Assembly (NCBI GenBank): GCA_025360785.1
Contig: JANYBN010000207.1
Location: 1 to 64,000, forward strand
Origin: Geobacter sp.
Lineage (GTDB): Bacteria; Desulfobacterota; Desulfuromonadia; Geobacterales; Pseudopelobacteraceae
Length of the DNA stretch: 64,000 nt
Reading direction: 5' to 3'
Shown: positions 21,790 to 47,903 of the stretch, one piece after another
Layout: each line of letters begins with the position of its first letter
Position numbering within the stretch: position 1 is the first letter of the stretch
Position numbers and translations under genes: made by a program
Notes under the pieces: generated by a model
What the model was told of the DNA's origin: nothing
Seen by the model: the letters and a program-made list of their open reading frames with translations, nothing else
Database searches by the model: none

Positions 21790-22566
21790 ATGTCAGGAGG
21801 AACAATCTGGAAAGGATCGGTCCATTTCGGGGATATGGATGTGCCGGTGAAGCTTCATACTGCGGTCAAGGAAGAGCGGATTCAGTTTCATCTCCTTCAC
21901 CGGCGCGATCGTGTGAGATTGCACCAGCAGATGATCTGTGTATATGAAAAAACACCCGTACAGCCGGAAGCTCAGATCAAAGGATTTGAAGTGGAGGAAG
22001 GGAAATATGTCATCGTCGATCAGGAGGAACTGGAACAAACCACACCTGAAAGCAGCCGAATGATAGAAGTCCACGAATTCGTCAAGAGTTCACAGATCTA
22101 TCCTCTCTTCCTCGATCACGTCTACTATCTGGAGCCGGATTCAGAAATCTACGCATCAAGATATAACGAGCTTGTCGGGGCTTTGCAACGTATGTCCATG
22201 GCAGGGATCTGCACCTGGACCATGAGAAAGCGCTCCTATCTCGGAGCCGTTCAGGCAAGGGGAAAAATTCTGCGCCTGAGTACCTTGCGTTATGCCGATG
22301 AAGTGATTTCGGCGGCATCTCTGGAACTGCAGGAAATTCCCGTGTCCGAAAAGGAACTGAACATCGGGAGCGAGTTGATCAACCAGTTGACCGCGCCTTT
22401 TGAACCGCAGAAATTTAAGAATGAGCACCAGAAAAGGTTGCAGCAACTGATTGATAAAAAAGCCCGCGGCGAAAAAGTTGTACTCCTGCGCCCCAGGATC
22501 TTGCAGCCAACGGCACAGGACAAACTGCTTGAGGTTCTTGAAGCGAGTCTGAAAAAAGCCGCCTGA
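21790..22566 (+). CDS. ku: Ku protein, first of two tandem copies
   Basis: Bacterial Ku forms a ring that binds DNA double-strand ends and recruits LigD for non-homologous end joining. The 258-residue protein shows the Ku core: GGTIWKGSVHFGDMDVPVKLHTAV, HLLHRRDRVRLHQQMIC, YVIVDQEELEQTTPESSRMIEVHEFV, PLFLDHVYYLEPD and MAGICTWTMRKRSYLGAVQARG. It has a short basic C-terminal tail (LEASLKKAA). The next Ku starts 13 bp after its stop with its own AAGGAG. Differences between the two suggest a heterodimer rather than simple duplication. Confidence 0.93.
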   Translation: MSGGTIWKGSVHFGDMDVPVKLHTAVKEERIQFHLLHRRDRVRLHQQMICVYEKTPVQPEAQIKGFEVEEGKYVIVDQEELEQTTPESSRMIEVHEFVKSSQIYPLFLDHVYYLEPDSEIYASRYNELVGALQRMSMAGICTWTMRKRSYLGAVQARGKILRLSTLRYADEVISAASLELQEIPVSEKELNIGSELINQLTAPFEPQKFKNEHQKRLQQLIDKKARGEKVVLLRPRILQPTAQDKLLEVLEASLKKAA

Positions 22567-22579
22567 AGGAGAAAATATC

Positions 22580-23350
22580 ATGTGGAGCGGGACGGTCAGT
22601 TTCAGCCTGGTTGCGATTCCGGTGCGGTTGGTTAAAGCCGTCAAGCCCGGCCACATCACGTTTCGCACACTTCACCGCACAGATTACTCCCCCCTCGCGC
22701 GAAGGATGTACTGTCCAAAACACGAACAGATCGTCCCCCCTGATGAGATTGTCAGGGGCTACGAAATTGTTCCCGACCGATACCTGCCGATAACGGATGA
22801 GGAACTGGAGTCAGTGTCTCCGGAACGTAGTCGCACCATCGAGATTATCGAGTTCATCGATATGGATGAGGTTGATCCGATTTATTATGACCATCCATAT
22901 TATCTCGTTCCATTGAAAGGGGGCGAAAAAGCATATCGGCTGCTGGCCGAGGTGATGCGCCGGACGAACAGGGCCGGGCTCGCGAAATTCGTCATGGTTG
23001 AACGTGAATATCTCGTGGCGGTCATAAGCACCGAGGGGGCGCTGGCCATGATAACCCTCCATTACAGTGAGGAAGTACTGCCGGATGATGGCATTGCACC
23101 GAAGGAAGAGAAGATGGACGCCAAAGAGCTAAGCCTTATGGAACAAAGCATCAGGAACATGACAGCAGACTTTGATCCGGGAAAATATGCGAACAATCGC
23201 CGGGAAAGTGTCATGGAGCTTGTGAAGCTGAAGATGAAGGAACACGCTCCGGTGGAGGCCCCTGCAGTCGAAGAAGAAGCGGGAGTGGGCCCACCCGATC
23301 TGGTCGCGGCGCTGGAGGAAATCATGCGTGACGTGAAGAAGAGCCGATGA
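22580..23350 (+). CDS. ku: Ku protein, second tandem copy
   Basis: A 256-residue Ku with the same core order as its neighbour: MWSGTVSFSLVAIPVRLVKAV, TLHRTDYSPLARRMYCPKHEQIV, RYLPITDEELESVSPERSRTIEIIEFI, DPIYYDHPYYLVPLKGGEKAYRLLAEVM and KFVMVEREYLVAVISTEG. It keeps a CPKH segment resembling a residual zinc-knuckle. The C-terminus is acidic (VEAPAVEEEAG) rather than basic, unlike many single bacterial Ku proteins. The stop overlaps the LigD polymerase start (ATGA). Confidence 0.93.
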   Translation: MWSGTVSFSLVAIPVRLVKAVKPGHITFRTLHRTDYSPLARRMYCPKHEQIVPPDEIVRGYEIVPDRYLPITDEELESVSPERSRTIEIIEFIDMDEVDPIYYDHPYYLVPLKGGEKAYRLLAEVMRRTNRAGLAKFVMVEREYLVAVISTEGALAMITLHYSEEVLPDDGIAPKEEKMDAKELSLMEQSIRNMTADFDPGKYANNRRESVMELVKLKMKEHAPVEAPAVEEEAGVGPPDLVAALEEIMRDVKKSR

Positions 23351-24252
23351 GCCGCAAAGTCATTGAAATAGCCGGGAGAAGACTCGCCCTTTCCAACCTT
23401 GAAAAAGATCTCTACCCTTCCTGGGGTTTCACCAAGGCACACGTCCTGGATTATTACCGCCGGATTGCTGCGTTCATGCTGCCGCACCTGAAAGACCGGG
23501 CCTTGACCCTGAAGCGCTATCCCGATGGAGTGGGAAAGGCCTTCTTTTTTGTGAAACGTTGTCCTGACTACCATCCGGTCTGGGCGAAAACGGCCGAGGT
23601 CCGTCGCGGCAGCAGCAAAATGATGACGGTCTGTCTTGCCAACAATCTGGAAACACTGCTCTGGGTGGAGAACCTTGCGTCCCTTGAGCTCCATGTGCCG
23701 CTGTCCAGAACAGGTTCCCCTGAAACGCCCGATGCCATGGTCTTCGACCTGGATCCCGGCGAGCAGGCCACCATTCTGGATTGCGCCATTGTAGCGCTGA
23801 TACTGCGGATACTGCTCACCAGGCTGCGGCTTGCAAGCTATCCCAAAACCTCGGGCCAGAAGGGACTTCATGTCTATGTTCCCTTGAACTACCGGGAGGC
23901 GACGTTTGAGGACACAAAGATCTTTTCAAAAACGGTAGCGGTGATCATGCAGAAAAATTATCCGGATCTGGTGACCGCAAAAATGGCGAAGGAACAACGT
24001 ACGGGAAAGGTCTTTATCAACTGGTCCCAGAACGATGCGTCCAAGACGATGATCTGCGTCTATTCCCTGAGGGCCCGGGAAAAGCCTTTTGTTTCGTTTC
24101 CGTTAGAATGGAAGGAACTGGAGCGTCTGGTCAGGCAAGGTAAACCGGAAAGCCTGCAGGTCATGTATTCGGAAGCCGTGAGCAGGGTCGAAGAAAGTGG
24201 TGACCTGTTTCGGCAGGTGCTGATTAAAAAGCAGAAGCTGCCGCATCTATAA
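23347..24252 (+). CDS. ligD: LigD-type polymerase (primase-polymerase) as a separate protein
   Basis: A 301-residue archaeo-eukaryotic primase-like polymerase that fills or extends ends during NHEJ, usually a domain of LigD. The catalytic acidic pair is FDLDPG near residue 132; SNLEKDLYPSWGFTKAHVLDYY and RALTLKRYPDG lie near the N-terminus; SYPKTSGQKGLHVYVPL contains the conserved nucleotide-contacting Ser and His. It stands alone, with the phosphoesterase and ligase domains encoded by the next gene 100 bp downstream. Confidence 0.92.
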   Translation: MSRKVIEIAGRRLALSNLEKDLYPSWGFTKAHVLDYYRRIAAFMLPHLKDRALTLKRYPDGVGKAFFFVKRCPDYHPVWAKTAEVRRGSSKMMTVCLANNLETLLWVENLASLELHVPLSRTGSPETPDAMVFDLDPGEQATILDCAIVALILRILLTRLRLASYPKTSGQKGLHVYVPLNYREATFEDTKIFSKTVAVIMQKNYPDLVTAKMAKEQRTGKVFINWSQNDASKTMICVYSLRAREKPFVSFPLEWKELERLVRQGKPESLQVMYSEAVSRVEESGDLFRQVLIKKQKLPHL

Positions 24253-24352
24253 CATATTCGCAAAAACCTAAACCGGACAATGCTGACACAAACAAAACTT
24301 GTATGTTGTTATAAAGTTTTGCTCATATCAAATACTCATTGGACTTTCAAAG

Positions 24353-25957
24353 ATGGGATTACGGGAATATACAGCCAAACGGCAATTCGAGAAAACGCCC
24401 GAACCGAAGCCGGACTCTCATCAAGAGAAGCACCGTCTCGTGTTTGTTTTGCATAAGCACGCAGCCCGGGCTCTTCATTACGATCTCAGGCTGGAATTGG
24501 GAGGGGTTCTGAAAAGCTGGGCGGTGCCGAAGGGTCCCTCGCTTGATCCTGCCGTAAAAAGGCTGGCCGTTATGGTTGAAGACCACCCGTTTGATTACAA
24601 GGATTTCGAAGGCGTCATCCCGGAGGGGAATTACGGCGCGGGCAGCGTCATCATCTGGGACCGGGGCTTTTATCACCATCCTTTTGCAGGAGATGAGAAC
24701 GAAAACGAGCAGCTTCTTCTGAACGGATTACGAAAAGGTGATCTGAAGTTTGTGCTCGAAGGGGAAAAGCTTCATGGCGAATTTGCGCTGGTCAAGACGG
24801 GCAAAGACGGGAAGTCGTGGCTGCTCCTGAAAAAGAAAGATCGATATGCGGCCACAGGAGACATCCTCAAGGAGAACCTTTCTGTCGTGTCCCGCAAAAC
24901 GCTGGAGGAGACACTCGAAGCCGGCACTCAGAAATCTTTTCGACAAAAAAAAACAAGTCAGATCAGACTTCACGAAGCAATGGAAAACGAAGAGCTGAAG
25001 GATGCGCCGGTTAAGCCGATGCCGCACAATATAAAACCGATGCTCGCGACCCTGGTCAAGGAACCGTTTGACGATCCGGATTGGCTTTTTGAAGTTAAAT
25101 GGGACGGTTACCGCGCCGTAGCCGATATCCGGGACGGAAAAGCCTTTCTTTATTCCCGGAACGGGATCTCGTTCGAAGAAAAGTTTTATCCTGTTGTGGA
25201 GTCGTTGCGGAAATTCAGATTCGATGCCGTTCTGGACGGTGAAATCGTAGTCGTGGATGACCTTGGGATCCCTGATTTCCAGCTGCTGCAGCATTACCGG
25301 AAGTCGGAAAACGGTCATCTGCTCTACTACGTCTTTGACCTGCTGTACTTCCAGGGGCATGACCTGACCAACCTTCCCCTACTCAGGAGAAAAGAACTCC
25401 TGAAAAAAATTCTCCCGGTTCTCCCGAACATACGCTTCAGCGATCACGTATTGAAGGAGGGAGTCCTTTTTTTCAATGTCGTCAGGAAAAAAGGACTGGA
25501 AGGGATCATCGCCAAACATGCTCAGAGTACTTACCAAACAGCCGGAAGGAGCCGGCAATGGCTGAAGGTGAAGACGCGGCTCACGCAGGAAGGAGTGATT
25601 GCAGGATTCACGGAACCGGGAGTTGGAAGAAAGCATTTCGGCACCCTTATCCTGGGGGTATTCAAGGAGCAAGAACTGACCTGCATCGGTCATGCGGGAG
25701 GCGGCTTCACCACGAAGGAGCTGCAAGATATACACGAAAAGCTGGAACCCCTGATCCAAAAGGAATGCCCGTTTGACGTGAAGCCGGTTACCAATACCCC
25801 CGCCACCTGGGTGAAGCCGGAGCTGGTCTGCGAGGTTGTTTTCCACGGCTGGACCGACGAGGGAGTCATGAGACAGCCGGTATTCCTCCGGATGCGCGAG
25901 GACAAAACCGCCGGCGAAGTGGTGCAGGGCAACGACGGCAAAGGAGCTAAACCATGA
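24353..25957 (+). CDS. ligD: LigD with phosphoesterase and ATP-dependent ligase domains
   Basis: About 534 residues. Residues 25-165 are the 3'-phosphoesterase domain (HKHAARALHYDLRLELGG, then VMVEDHPFDYKDFEGVIPEGNYGAG and VIIWDRG). Residues 225-534 are the ligase: the AMP-accepting Lys in LFEVKWDGYRAVADI near residue 248, VLDGEIVVVD, LEGIIAK and WLKVKTRLTQEGVIAGFT, then an OB domain. Together with the preceding gene this equals a full LigD. Start ATG 24353 is preferred over the TTG at 24299, which would add a non-conserved leader. Its stop overlaps the DUF72 start. Confidence 0.92.
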   Translation: MGLREYTAKRQFEKTPEPKPDSHQEKHRLVFVLHKHAARALHYDLRLELGGVLKSWAVPKGPSLDPAVKRLAVMVEDHPFDYKDFEGVIPEGNYGAGSVIIWDRGFYHHPFAGDENENEQLLLNGLRKGDLKFVLEGEKLHGEFALVKTGKDGKSWLLLKKKDRYAATGDILKENLSVVSRKTLEETLEAGTQKSFRQKKTSQIRLHEAMENEELKDAPVKPMPHNIKPMLATLVKEPFDDPDWLFEVKWDGYRAVADIRDGKAFLYSRNGISFEEKFYPVVESLRKFRFDAVLDGEIVVVDDLGIPDFQLLQHYRKSENGHLLYYVFDLLYFQGHDLTNLPLLRRKELLKKILPVLPNIRFSDHVLKEGVLFFNVVRKKGLEGIIAKHAQSTYQTAGRSRQWLKVKTRLTQEGVIAGFTEPGVGRKHFGTLILGVFKEQELTCIGHAGGGFTTKELQDIHEKLEPLIQKECPFDVKPVTNTPATWVKPELVCEVVFHGWTDEGVMRQPVFLRMREDKTAGEVVQGNDGKGAKP

Positions 25958-26658: not shown

Positions 26659-26746
26659 ACCTTTACCCTGCCTGGATGGTTCTGCGCGCGACAATGATTA
26701 TTCCGATTTCAAATCAAGATACTTCGCCCGATAATTGGAAATATCC

Positions 26747-27529
26747 ATGGAAATGGTGGTTGTCTTTATAAAAAACGAAAAACCGCCCTGCTACGAAGCA
26801 CTGACGGCGCCGAACGTGCGTATCGAGTTCATACCGTTCCATGCGGCGGCTTCTGTCCGGGAACACACTATTGATCTGGCAGTTATTGACTGCGGCAACG
26901 ATTTTGAAGCCGGCTTGCGCGTTCTGAAAGAAATAAAACAGTGTCGTCCCGACCTACCTGTCATCTTCATAGCTGAGGCAAGTTCCGAAGAAGTAGTCCT
27001 GGAGGCTTTCAAGCTTGGTGCCAGGGACTACTTCAGGAAACCGCTCGACCTGTTCGCGTTAAGAGAAACTGCAGCAAAGATCCTGGGATTCAAACGGATT
27101 CGGACGGAAAACGGTCCGGAGCAATCCGGCAGGAGTAATGATGTGATCCGGGCGCAATTCCCTCTTTCCGATAATCTGCCGGAAAAAGTGCTGCGCGCAA
27201 TCAGCTACATTAATGACAATCTGTTTACCCCACTCTGTCTGGATTTGATTGCCCGGCAGGCCTGTCTGAGTAAATTTCATTTCTGCCGCCTGTTCAAACT
27301 CAACGTAGGGGTGAGTCCTAAGCAGTACTGCGTATTCCGGCGGATAGAGTACGCCAAACAGATTCTCTGCAGGCAAGGTCAGAATATTACTAATGCCGCT
27401 TTTGAATCCGGCTTCAACGACGTTACGGGGTTCATCAGACAATTCAAAAAAGCAACCGGAGTAACTCCCGGCGCCTACCGGGAATCCCAGGGTTCGGCTC
27501 TCACCAAAAACAGCAATATCCTCCGATAG
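26747..27529 (+). CDS. AraC-type regulator with degenerate receiver domain
   Basis: About 260 residues. The first 115 resemble a response-regulator receiver: VIDCGND has the phosphoryl Asp position, FRKPLD the conserved Lys, but the usual acidic pair after strand 1 is replaced (VVVFIKNEKPP) and the Thr/Ser site reads FIAEAS. Residues 150-255 form two AraC helix-turn-helix units (LIARQACLSKFHFCRLFKLNVGVSPKQY and NAAFESGFNDVTGFIRQFKKATGVTPGAYR). ATG 26747 is preferred to TTG 26735. Phosphorylation may not be required. No partner kinase is adjacent. Confidence 0.75.
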   Translation: MEMVVVFIKNEKPPCYEALTAPNVRIEFIPFHAAASVREHTIDLAVIDCGNDFEAGLRVLKEIKQCRPDLPVIFIAEASSEEVVLEAFKLGARDYFRKPLDLFALRETAAKILGFKRIRTENGPEQSGRSNDVIRAQFPLSDNLPEKVLRAISYINDNLFTPLCLDLIARQACLSKFHFCRLFKLNVGVSPKQYCVFRRIEYAKQILCRQGQNITNAAFESGFNDVTGFIRQFKKATGVTPGAYRESQGSALTKNSNILR

Positions 27530-27635: not shown

Positions 27636-29789
27636 ATGAAAACAAGCGAGAGGTCAGTTGCACTGAGTTTCTTAGCGGCAGTATTTATTATGGCTCAAAT
27701 GCTGGGTGGTGAGGCATTGGCGCAATCGAGCTATTACACAGGTCAAGGGTGTAATGGCTGCCATACCTCGGTTGTTACATGTAATGGTTGCCATGGACAT
27801 GGAGCCCATCCGAGCAGCGCCAAAAATGCCATCAATGTTGCAGGGACAACCAACAAAAGCTCCTATGCTCCCGGTGAGACCGTGACAGTCACCATTACCG
27901 GCGGATACCGTACCGGTTGGTTTAGGGCTGTTCTTTATAATCAGAACATGGTTGAACTGGCGAGATCAACCGGAAACGACAGCGGCGTAGGTAGCTCAAC
28001 CACATATCCCGCTACGTTGAGCGCTCCGGCGCCTACATCACCGGGCAGTTACAATTGGAAAGTTGCCTGGTACGGAAACCAGTATGATTCAGGAGGGGCT
28101 ACCTTCGGCTCCGGCTGGACCCCTGACGCCAATAATCCTGACCATGGCTCAGAGATTGTCAACATCGGCGCTGCTTTTACCGTTGCCACAGCCACTCTGC
28201 CTGCGCCAACAATCAGCTTGATTGACACCAACAGCCTTGTTCAGGGGACAACAAACCAGATCATTGCCATTACCGGTACCAACCTGACCGGCGCCACGAT
28301 TAAATTCAGTAATACCGGGATCAGTGCCGGACCCGCAACTGTCACCGCCACTTCAATACGTCTGCCGGTTAGTGTTGCCATCAACGCCGCCACCGGAGCG
28401 GGAACTGTCAGCATCTCCACCGGCAGCGGCAGCGCCTCTGTCCCCTTCAGCGTAACTTCTATAGCCATTCAGGCGCCGGCAATCAGTATGGTTACCCCCG
28501 ACAGCCTCATCCAGGGAGCAATCAATCAACCCGTAACCATTGCCGGAGCAAACCTTACCGGCGCCACAGTCAGCTTCAGCAACTCAGGCATCACCGGAGG
28601 CCAGGCTTCCGTCGCGGCAACGTCGATCAGACTCCCGGTCAATATAGCTGCCAATGCATCGAGCGGCGCGGGTATCATTACCGTCACCACGGCAGGAGGA
28701 AGCGCTTCCGGCACCTTCAGTGTCATGCCAAGAGCCAGTGCGCCGGTCCTGACAGTCTCTGCGCTCGTCAACGGGTCATACACAAATAACGCCACACTCA
28801 ACATCAGCGGCACCGTAACAGCTGCCGGCGGCGTTCAATCCGTCACTGTCAACAACCAGCCAGTTACTGTCATGTCCGACGGGTCTTTCACTACCGCCCT
28901 TACCCTTAATGCCGGTGCCAATACCATCACGGTTATCGCCACGGACAACAACGGCAATCAGAAAAGCGATATCCGCAGCATCAACTATGATCCGATTGCT
29001 CCAGTCCTGGCGGTTTCAACTCCAGCTGACAATAGTTCAAGTATTTTGTCCTATGTATTAGTGAGCGGCAGCATTAACGAGACTTCCACGATCGCCATCA
29101 CTGATAACGAAGGCAGCCCGCAATCCGCCACCGTAAATGGCAACAATTTCAGCTCCACCATTAATCTGGCACCAGGTGTGAATACTATTAACATAATAGC
29201 AACCGATCTGGCCGGCAACACATCCAGCGCCAAGCGAACCGTGGCCTACGATACCTCCAAGTTTATGCTTGCAATAACCAACCCTCCCCAGGATATGACC
29301 ACCAACCGGTCTGCACTGGTCCTGATGGGCAATGTCACTAATAGCTCAAAAGACATAACCGTTACCATCACCATGGCCGGCAAGTCTTACACCCAATTGG
29401 TCACAAACGGCATCTTCAAACAACGGCTTACCCTGACAAAGGCAGGGTTGTATCCCATCGCCGTCTCCGCCAAAGATGCTGCCGGTAACAACAGTACTGT
29501 AACCCGCAACGTGATTTACCGTCCTGCCAAAACAGGTGAGCGTGAAGACGACAATGGCTCAACCAGTGGCACAACAGGCGGCACAACCAATGGAACGACA
29601 GGTGGCACAACCAATGGTACAACCGGAACCGTCACCAGTCACCCCTTCGGCTGGACCAACCCGAAGAGCAGCCACCCGAATTATGTGGAAAAAAATGGTG
29701 TCAACGGCTGTGTCAGCTGCCACAGCATCGATCCGGCTTCCAAAGGACAGACAATGAGCTGCTACAATTGCCACGGCAAGCAATGGTAA
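27636..29789 (+). CDS. Secreted tetra-haem c-type cytochrome with Ig-like repeats
   Basis: A 717-residue exported protein (signal peptide ending EALAQ). Two CXXCH sites lie at the N-terminus (CNGCH, residues 39-43 and 49-53) and two at the very C-terminus (CVSCH about 692, CYNCH about 709). Between them are a beta domain (60-185), two IPT/TIG-like repeats (190-365), three bacterial-Ig-like repeats (370-630) and a low-complexity GTTGGTTNGTTG linker. The layout suggests an extended extracellular or outer-surface electron-transfer protein, as in metal-reducing bacteria. Electron partners are unknown. AAAAGGAG precedes the ATG. Confidence 0.85.
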   Translation: MKTSERSVALSFLAAVFIMAQMLGGEALAQSSYYTGQGCNGCHTSVVTCNGCHGHGAHPSSAKNAINVAGTTNKSSYAPGETVTVTITGGYRTGWFRAVLYNQNMVELARSTGNDSGVGSSTTYPATLSAPAPTSPGSYNWKVAWYGNQYDSGGATFGSGWTPDANNPDHGSEIVNIGAAFTVATATLPAPTISLIDTNSLVQGTTNQIIAITGTNLTGATIKFSNTGISAGPATVTATSIRLPVSVAINAATGAGTVSISTGSGSASVPFSVTSIAIQAPAISMVTPDSLIQGAINQPVTIAGANLTGATVSFSNSGITGGQASVAATSIRLPVNIAANASSGAGIITVTTAGGSASGTFSVMPRASAPVLTVSALVNGSYTNNATLNISGTVTAAGGVQSVTVNNQPVTVMSDGSFTTALTLNAGANTITVIATDNNGNQKSDIRSINYDPIAPVLAVSTPADNSSSILSYVLVSGSINETSTIAITDNEGSPQSATVNGNNFSSTINLAPGVNTINIIATDLAGNTSSAKRTVAYDTSKFMLAITNPPQDMTTNRSALVLMGNVTNSSKDITVTITMAGKSYTQLVTNGIFKQRLTLTKAGLYPIAVSAKDAAGNNSTVTRNVIYRPAKTGEREDDNGSTSGTTGGTTNGTTGGTTNGTTGTVTSHPFGWTNPKSSHPNYVEKNGVNGCVSCHSIDPASKGQTMSCYNCHGKQW
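29564..29630 (+). repeat. Short tandem repeat coding the GTT/NGTTG linker
   Basis: Imperfect 12-15-base units of the type GGCACAACCAATGGAACGAC are repeated about four times inside the cytochrome gene, encoding Gly-Thr-Thr-rich linker sequence. Such repeats can change copy number by slippage without disturbing the frame. Confidence 0.6.
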
Positions 29790-29830
29790 AGGGAGCCTGA
29801 AAATGCCGATTGTTATGACTACGATGCATA

Positions 29831-29862
29831 CCCCTGTGACAACCTGCAGGTTGTCACAGGGG
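29831..29862. terminator. Perfect 14-bp hairpin after the cytochrome gene
   Basis: CCCCTGTGACAACC, loop TGCA, GGTTGTCACAGGGG. It is very stable but lacks a T-run (followed by TTATAGG), so it may act with a factor or protect the mRNA 3' end. Confidence 0.7.
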
Positions 29863-29941
29863 TTATAGGTGTTATAATTCCGTGTGAGTGTGAGATGGAG
29901 GTAAGGGTGAGATCGGTCGACACTCGAAAGGAGAAACAGAT

Positions 29942-46976: not shown

Positions 46977-47903
46977 CTAATTTAACTTCGTGGTCTCGCC
47001 TGTCCATTCCATTATCTCGACAGTAGGTTTCTTGTAGATTGCCGGTGATGCAAGTGCATATGCGTAGAATGTTTTGGCGTTTTGCTCAATGTATGATGTT
47101 ACATCCGTCGTGTCTATTCCTGTCAGCATGTTCATTCGTTTTGCCACAAGAGTCCTTATATCAAGCTGTGGCTCATTGACAATATCGAGAGATGGGCCGG
47201 CGCAACCGCTACAAGCTGTCCCTCGTTTTGGACATGGAGCCAGGCAACGATTAAGTGTTACTGAGCCTAAACAAACCACCCCCTGGCTTAAGAAGCAGAT
47301 TTCCTGATCCTCTGCAGTCAACTCACCACGTTTAAGAGTGATATTTTCGCTTTTGCGCATTTTACGGGTGCAATCGGAACAGACCGGTTTTCCGGTTATT
47401 CTGGGAGCGCACGGATCAAGTACCGCCTTGATTGCAGCCGCGATAAAATAGGGGTGTGGTGGACAACCCGGCAGATATATATCTACCGGCACAACCTCAT
47501 CAATCGGAACGACGCACTCTTCCAGAGGGACAGCATTCATATCGGGACTCTCAGTGCCGGAATTGGTTGGGCCTGATCTATAAGCACAATTCATGACATC
47601 ACTGGATTCGTGCAGCCAACCAATGCCGGAGGGGCCTCCATATACGGCGCAGGTGCCAAAGGCAATCAAGGTTTTTACTTTGGATCGCATTTTTTTCAAC
47701 GCTACACGATCATGTTCGCTGCGTACAGCGCCCTCAACAATACCAATATCCGCCTCTGGGTAATCCTTTTCGTCCATAAGCACCGGAATTCTGACAAACT
47801 CAACATTTTCTAAGAGACCCAGCAGCTTTTCGTGGAGATCGACAACAGCCACGTGACACCCGGAACACCCGGAAAGCCATTCGGTTGCAATAGTTGCCTT
47901 CAT
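46977..47903 (-). CDS. NiFe hydrogenase small subunit (MvhG/FrhG-like)
   Basis: A 308-residue Fe-S subunit. EWLSGCSGCHVAVVDLHEKL and GTCAVYGG and PGCPPHP supply the proximal [4Fe-4S] cluster. The C-terminal part (CSDCTRKM, then ICFLSQGVVCLGSVTLNRCLAPCPKRGTACSGCAGPS) holds further cysteines typical of the long MvhG/FrhG form, giving up to three clusters. It passes electrons from the NiFe site to the ferredoxin-like protein. ATG follows GAGGTAGCTAA. Confidence 0.9.
   Translation of the reverse strand: MKATIATEWLSGCSGCHVAVVDLHEKLLGLLENVEFVRIPVLMDEKDYPEADIGIVEGAVRSEHDRVALKKMRSKVKTLIAFGTCAVYGGPSGIGWLHESSDVMNCAYRSGPTNSGTESPDMNAVPLEECVVPIDEVVPVDIYLPGCPPHPYFIAAAIKAVLDPCAPRITGKPVCSDCTRKMRKSENITLKRGELTAEDQEICFLSQGVVCLGSVTLNRCLAPCPKRGTACSGCAGPSLDIVNEPQLDIRTLVAKRMNMLTGIDTTDVTSYIEQNAKTFYAYALASPAIYKKPTVEIMEWTGETTKLN

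What the first reader, a model, noticed from the sequence alone, without database searches (positions are those of the whole stretch)
27636..29789. Cytochrome with haems at both ends of a 600-residue Ig-like rod
Two CXXCH sites lie within the first 55 residues and two within the last 26, separated by IPT-like and Ig-like repeats and a Gly/Thr linker. Direct electron flow between the two pairs along one chain is unlikely, so the molecule may bridge two partners or assemble end-to-end into fibres that stack the terminal haem pairs.
Basis: partly seen in the sequence, partly recalled or inferred. Interest (0 to 1): 0.52.

Follow-up and report, generated by a model that had tools for sequence, protein, structure and literature searches.

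The report
Two-ended tethered haem surface protein
This Geobacter-relative gene encodes a long, probably cell-surface protein with a pair of electron-carrying haems at each end; comparison with relatives shows that the front pair is the old, widespread part and the rear pair is an optional add-on, so it is more likely a tethered electron relay than a building block of a haem-stacked fibre.

Summary
One 717-residue ORF (27636-29789, +) has CXXCH at residues 39, 49, 692 and 709. All eight cysteines lie in these motifs, and the 610 residues between hold no cysteine and one histidine. The protein is modular: signal peptide; N-terminal dihaem plus beta-sandwich "head" (30-184); about five Ig-like domains (185-630); a 37-residue Gly/Thr linker, predicted disordered; and a 50-residue dihaem tail. 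Each end carries exactly two invariant non-CXXCH histidines (head H55, H170; tail H669, H680), so each pair can be bis-His ligated on its own. The head is widespread (Geobacterales, Anaeromyxobacter, Nitrospirota, Gammaproteobacteria, Poribacteria). Of 47 uncut head-bearing homologues, 40 have only the head pair and four carry the tail, two of those in two linker-separated copies. Tailless relatives often end in an acidic stretch or a MYXO/JDVT-CTERM-type anchor. The tail matches a repeat unit of Geobacterales polyhaem lipoproteins. Best reading: a surface dihaem head on an Ig stalk that gained a flexibly tethered second dihaem unit, working by tethered electron exchange like PgcA. New variant of a known kind; function untested.

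The parts
27636..29789 (+). whole gene: 717-aa tetrahaem c-type cytochrome with Ig-like rod
   Evidence: ORF listing and RBS; the only multihaem ORF in the 64-kb window and the only copy of its head and tail in the genome
27636..27722 (+). Sec-type signal peptide, residues 1-29, likely cut at ALA|QSSYY; no lipobox Cys
   Evidence: sequence; homologues all begin the mature part with (Q/A)SSYF-like residues about 9 before the first haem
27723..28187 (+). head module, residues 30-184: dihaem CXXCH-x5-CXXCH-x-H followed by an Ig/macroglobulin-like beta-sandwich that supplies a conserved His (H170)
   Evidence: A1/A3 alignments, 31 sequences from several phyla, invariant His only 43, 53, 55, 170; AF2 pLDDT 77.6, sandwich blocks up to 98; Foldseek weak matches to MG/Ig domains
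27750..27794 (+). N-terminal haem pair (CNGCH at 39, CNGCH at 49)
28188..28739 (+). two IPT-like Ig repeats and connector (residues 185-368)
   Evidence: Pfam PF09099 sub-threshold here, above threshold in L008
28740..29525 (+). three Glucodextran_B-type Ig-like domains (residues 369-630), the best conserved part of the rod
   Evidence: Pfam PF09136 E 9.6e-35, three stretches; invariant residues in A4
29526..29636 (+). 37-residue Gly/Thr/Asp linker (631-667), predicted disordered
   Evidence: AF2 pLDDT 25-34 for mature residues 611-688; sequence
29637..29786 (+). portable dihaem tail module (668-717): SHPFGWTNP-SSHP-Y-(x)-NG-CVSCH-x12-CYNCHGKQW with two invariant distal His (669, 680)
   Evidence: A2 alignment; found in 1-2 copies in four proteins and, as related units, in polyhaem lipoproteins and a CTERM-anchored protein
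29830..29863 (.). 34-bp perfect palindrome just after the stop codon, probably the transcription terminator hairpin
   Evidence: (z -5.4)

Best explanation
A secreted, probably surface-displayed tetrahaem c-type cytochrome built from exchangeable modules. The N-terminal dihaem/beta-sandwich head is the ancestral functional unit; five Ig-like domains act as a stiff, non-conducting spacer (inferred, roughly 20 nm); the C-terminal end is where relatives carry an anchor or an acidic tail. Here that end carries a second, self-contained dihaem unit related to the units of polyhaem cytochromes and held on a disordered Gly/Thr tether. Electrons do not pass along the rod. Each pair takes up or gives off electrons by contact: the flexible tail exchanges with cytochromes at the cell surface or in the matrix, while the head exchanges with a distant partner (mineral, another cytochrome, another cell). 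Molecules pass electrons between ends only by tethered collision, as shown for PgcA. Shown: module borders, haem motifs, ligand conservation, the tail being optional and duplicated, anchors on relatives. Inferred: surface location here, bis-His ligation, mechanism, partners.
For: Exactly two invariant non-motif His at each end. No Cys and a single His across the 610 residues between. Linker and tail have no predicted structure (pLDDT 25-34), though the whole-chain model is poor. Tail has 0, 1 or 2 copies, the two copies separated by a further flexible linker of about 18 residues. The tail needs two gains or losses on the rod tree. The tail changes slowly at the protein level (dN to the window gene 0.07-0.12 against 0.16-0.29 for the adjoining rod domains, dS high), so it is under selection. 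The tail is homologous to a unit of polyhaem lipoproteins (E 1.7e-7; hhalign probability 91%). Head-bearing relatives end in MYXO-CTERM (22.8 against cut-off 20) or JDVT-CTERM (27.3 against 27) anchors, so the head points away from the envelope there. In L130 the head is fused to a tetrathionate-reductase-like octahaem protein, so it can work as an electron-exchange domain. The host encodes a type II secretin and many other close haem pairs. PgcA precedent: PMC11520253.
Against: No localisation, haem or redox data. No conserved neighbour gene identifies a partner. AF2 cannot place haems, and the full-length model is poor (pLDDT 61.5, pTM 0.31), so rod length and stiffness are inferred. The tail, if a docking unit, could serve binding rather than electron exchange. 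PgcA itself has single-haem, partly His-Met domains on PT linkers and no Ig rod.
Confidence: 0.5

Rival explanations
1. Redox-tipped adhesin or matrix protein: the Ig rod and tail mainly glue the protein to a cytochrome-rich matrix or mineral, the haem pairs serving as binding modules as much as electron carriers.
For: Ig-like/IPT/Glucodextran_B rods are typical of bacterial surface adhesins; the C-terminal position is used for anchoring in relatives; the tail is optional.
Against: Haem ligands at both ends are invariant and the tail is more conserved than the rod, which argues for a real redox role.
Confidence: 0.22
2. End-to-end fibre: molecules assemble head to tail so that terminal haem pairs stack into conducting junctions.
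For: Haem pairs sit at the two extreme ends; cytochrome filaments exist in Geobacter and may be more diverse than known (PMC9473688).
Against: 40 of 47 uncut homologues lack the tail pair, including 18 of 22 with the same rod end; tail number varies 0-2 and hangs on flexible linkers; long haem-free rods would break conduction anyway; each pair has its own conserved His set.
Confidence: 0.06
3. OmcZ-like processing: the protein is cut after secretion, so that head and tail haem units act as separate proteins.
For: OmcZ precursor has an N-terminal haem part and C-terminal tandem Ig domains that are absent from the filament (PMC9473688); in G015 a head-only 216-aa protein is encoded directly beside the full-length one.
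Against: No cleavage motif identified; in head-bearing relatives the stalk leads to an anchor, so it has to stay attached to the head.
Confidence: 0.1
4. Periplasmic bridging cytochrome linking inner- and outer-membrane partners.
For: Sec signal and no anchor in this protein; the length could span a periplasm.
Against: Adhesin-type rod; CTERM-anchored relatives; tail homologues are predicted lipoproteins.
Confidence: 0.12

Closest known systems
PgcA of Geobacter sulfurreducens (tethered triheme cytochrome; PMC11520253)
   Same: Haem domains held far apart on one chain by low-complexity linkers, no packed haem chain, extracellular electron exchange by tethered diffusion.
   Different: PgcA has three single-haem domains (two His-Met, one His-His) on (PT)x linkers and no Ig rod; here there are two dihaem units, likely bis-His, with a five-domain Ig spacer. 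No PgcA structure was hit by the PDB sequence searches.
OmcZ precursor and other Geobacter cytochrome nanowires (OmcS, OmcE; PMC9473688)
   Same: Secreted Geobacter cytochrome combined with tandem Ig domains (OmcZ).
   Different: OmcZ has eight packed haems and its filament lacks the Ig part; here haems are at both ends, two each, and no dense haem core exists.
Geobacterales polyhaem lipoproteins with HPxxW-(x)n-HxxY-(x)n-NG-CxxCH-CxxCH units (e.g. L059, L065)
   Same: The tail is a homologous unit.
   Different: They are arrays of the unit behind a lipobox; here one unit sits behind an Ig rod.
Head-bearing choice-of-anchor/Ig-type surface proteins with MYXO-CTERM or JDVT-CTERM (e.g. L120 Anaeromyxobacteraceae, L142 Ectothiorhodospiraceae)
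   Same: Same N-terminal dihaem/beta-sandwich head on a long beta-rich stalk.
   Different: Membrane-anchor tail in place of the dihaem tail; different stalk domains.

Membership tests
dihaem/beta-sandwich head family (defined here, A3) | N-terminal CXXCH-x(4-14)-CXXCH-x-H directly after signal peptide, followed by beta-sandwich with invariant GW, PGTYxW-like motif and distal His | tested here: met
   31 sequences, H43/H53/H55/H170 invariant
Geobacterales polyhaem lipoprotein unit (tail) | His-xx-(xx)-W ... His-xx-Tyr ... NG ... CXXCH ... CXXCH | tested here: met
   profile match E 1.7e-7 to L059, pattern matches, hhalign
Geobacterales polyhaem lipoprotein (whole protein) | lipobox signal and array of many haem units | tested here: not met
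   no lipobox Cys; one unit only
PgcA-type tethered cytochrome | separate haem domains on one chain without a packed haem chain | tested here: met
   no Cys, one His between the ends; disordered linker
PgcA-type tethered cytochrome | flexible conformations and electron exchange between domains | not testable with these tools
   needs SAXS, NMR and voltammetry
OmcS/OmcE/OmcZ nanowire cytochromes | four or more closely packed haems per subunit | tested here: not met
   two plus two haems separated by about 610 residues; no PDB sequence match
OmcS/OmcE/OmcZ nanowire cytochromes | polymerisation into filaments | not testable with these tools
Cytochrome c3/c7 (PF14537, PF14522) | Pfam match over the gathering score | tested here: not met
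   L009 tails 20.6 bits against 25; no match in the window protein

The most novel reading that the evidence does not exclude
A two-ended redox tether: a surface cytochrome that holds two self-contained dihaem units some 20 nm apart on a non-conducting Ig stalk, so that one molecule bridges two redox partners (cell surface and mineral, or two cells) and electrons cross only by swinging or by collision with neighbouring molecules; a dihaem analogue of PgcA that evolved by attaching a unit of a polyhaem lipoprotein where relatives have a cell anchor or an acidic end.
Probability: 0.3. Interest if true: 0.6.

Novelty: new variant of a known kind. Interest (0 to 1): 0.37.

Why it matters
[quoted passage not shown] A second, unrelated design with a measurable spacer between two haem pairs would show that long-range extracellular electron transfer does not need packed haem wires. 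The head family, found here in several phyla and matching no Pfam family over its cut-off, also points to an undescribed class of haem-tipped surface stalks.

Tried and rejected
A scan of genome contigs with the full protein gave nothing, probably because its patterns fell in variable parts; repeated with the head alignment it gave 56 loci. Conserved gene neighbourhood: none, apart from a receiver/AraC-type regulator (window 26735-27529) whose relatives lie near two other head genes (L050, L053), too weak to use. PDB sequence searches with the whole protein, head and tail gave only chance-level hits. Pfam for the head: Reeler, MG2, Arrestin_C and others, weak and scattered; Foldseek best E 7e-3, TM about 0.4 to macroglobulin and Ig domains, so only 'Ig/MG-like sandwich' is claimed. 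Full-length AF2 too weak to measure distances, and model coordinates are not readable here. The idea that the tail in L009 was transferred recently (tail synonymous divergence to the window gene 0.70 against 1.4-3.2 elsewhere) rests on 50 codons and does not hold for L007 and L008, so it is not claimed. Literature searches found no paper on this family.

Full report
OBSERVATION. The ORF at 27636-29789 (+) encodes 717 residues. CXXCH motifs start at residues 39, 49, 692 and 709. Every cysteine is in a CXXCH motif, and residues 59-668 hold no cysteine and one histidine. None of 200,000 residue shuffles had two CXXCH or more. The gene is alone: no other multihaem ORF lies in the window, and neither the head nor a close copy of the tail occurs elsewhere in the genome. 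The genome is otherwise rich in haem pairs (25 close CXXCH pairs by DNA pattern, 0 in the reversed-pattern control) and has a type II secretin. Relatives by name are Geobacterales/Desulfuromonadales.

ANATOMY. Residues 1-29: Sec signal without lipobox. Residues 30-184: head, two haems within the first 24 mature residues followed by a beta-sandwich (AF2 pLDDT 77.6 overall and up to 98 in the sandwich, low in the haem segment, as expected without haems; Foldseek: Ig/macroglobulin-like, weak). Residues 185-368: two IPT-like Ig repeats and connector. Residues 369-630: three Glucodextran_B Ig-like domains. Residues 631-667: Gly/Thr/Asp linker. Residues 668-717: dihaem tail. The full-length AF2 model has low confidence (pLDDT 61.5, pTM 0.31) but shows strands through the rod and no structure after residue 632.

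LIGANDS. Across 31 head sequences from several phyla the only invariant histidines are the two in the motifs plus H55 (CXXCH-x-H) and H170, in the last part of the sandwich. In the tail the four invariant histidines are H669, H680 and the two in the motifs. Each end therefore has exactly the histidines needed for two bis-His haems. Ligation itself is inferred.

HOMOLOGUES. In the 141 held genomes of the order the head occurs in 29, the close form of the tail in 4. In named public genomes the head extends to Anaeromyxobacter, Nitrospirota, Methylomirabilota, Gammaproteobacteria, Poribacteria and others. Of 47 uncut head-bearing ORFs, 40 have no further haem, 4 have the tail (window, L007, L008, L009), and 3 have other haems: L053, L130 (head fused to a protein like the tetrathionate-reductase-family octahaem cytochromes, 166.8 bits but below that family's cut-off) and L149. 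L007 and L009 carry two tail copies separated by a Gly/Thr or Gly/Ser linker. Of 22 proteins sharing the three-domain rod end, 18 end without haems, mostly in an acidic 'DD' stretch. On their tree the tail needs two changes, so it was gained or lost more than once, though several forks are poorly supported. Outside Geobacterales several head proteins end in a hydrophobic segment plus arginines; two pass the curated cut-off for MYXO-CTERM or JDVT-CTERM.

ORIGIN OF THE TAIL. The tail profile matches a 470-aa, nine-CXXCH predicted lipoprotein of the same genus (G022, L059; E 1.7e-7) and weaker relatives; the shared pattern is HPxxW-(x)n-HxxY-(x)n-NG-C..CH-(x)n-CxxCH, and hhalign against L065 gives 91% with both sequences ending in a CXXCH followed shortly by a final Trp region. 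A distant genome of the phylum has two related units in a protein with a CTERM-like end (L164). The tail is thus a portable dihaem unit. It is the slowest or among the slowest changing parts at the protein level while synonymous sites are near saturation, so it is kept by selection where present.

MECHANISM. The rod offers no redox residues and separates the pairs by about five domains (roughly 20 nm if extended; inference). A 37-residue tether lets the tail move several nanometres. Some relatives use the C-terminal end to hold on to the cell, with the head outward. The best-supported mechanism is contact-dependent exchange at both ends: the head with an outside partner, the tail with cytochromes near the cell or in the matrix. 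PgcA is experimental precedent for tethered haem domains working without a packed chain (PMC11520253). The fibre idea is disfavoured: most homologues lack one pair, tail number varies, linkers are flexible, and ligand sets are complete in each unit. It is not excluded for the four tail-bearing proteins, since OmcZ polymerises without shared ligands (PMC9473688).

VERDICT. Observation confirmed; interpretation partly supported. New variant of a known kind. Interest moderate: an unusual architecture and an apparently undescribed head family, but function rests on comparison alone.

Noticed in passing
window 29830-29863: 34-bp perfect palindrome 40 bases after the stop codon, folding at z -5.4; probably a terminator, though the T run is poor.
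   Followed up: partly
window 26735-27529: Receiver plus AraC-type HTH regulator directly upstream, same strand, 106 bp away; relatives lie near head-module genes in L050 and L053.
   Followed up: partly
L130 3087-5726: Head module fused to a tetrathionate-reductase-like octahaem cytochrome, 12 CXXCH in all.
   Followed up: partly
   Followed up: no
L164 829-3138: Cys-rich repeat protein (CDGIDNDCDGQVDEG repeats) with two dihaem units related to the tail and a CTERM-like membrane end.
   Followed up: no
window 21790-25957: By eye only: two Ku-like genes followed by LigD polymerase- and ligase-like genes, an apparent NHEJ cluster; not scanned.
   Followed up: no
window 46977-47903: Minus-strand ORF with a single CXXCH (CSGCH) near the N-terminus that looks like a hydrogenase small subunit, not a cytochrome; not scanned.
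   Followed up: no
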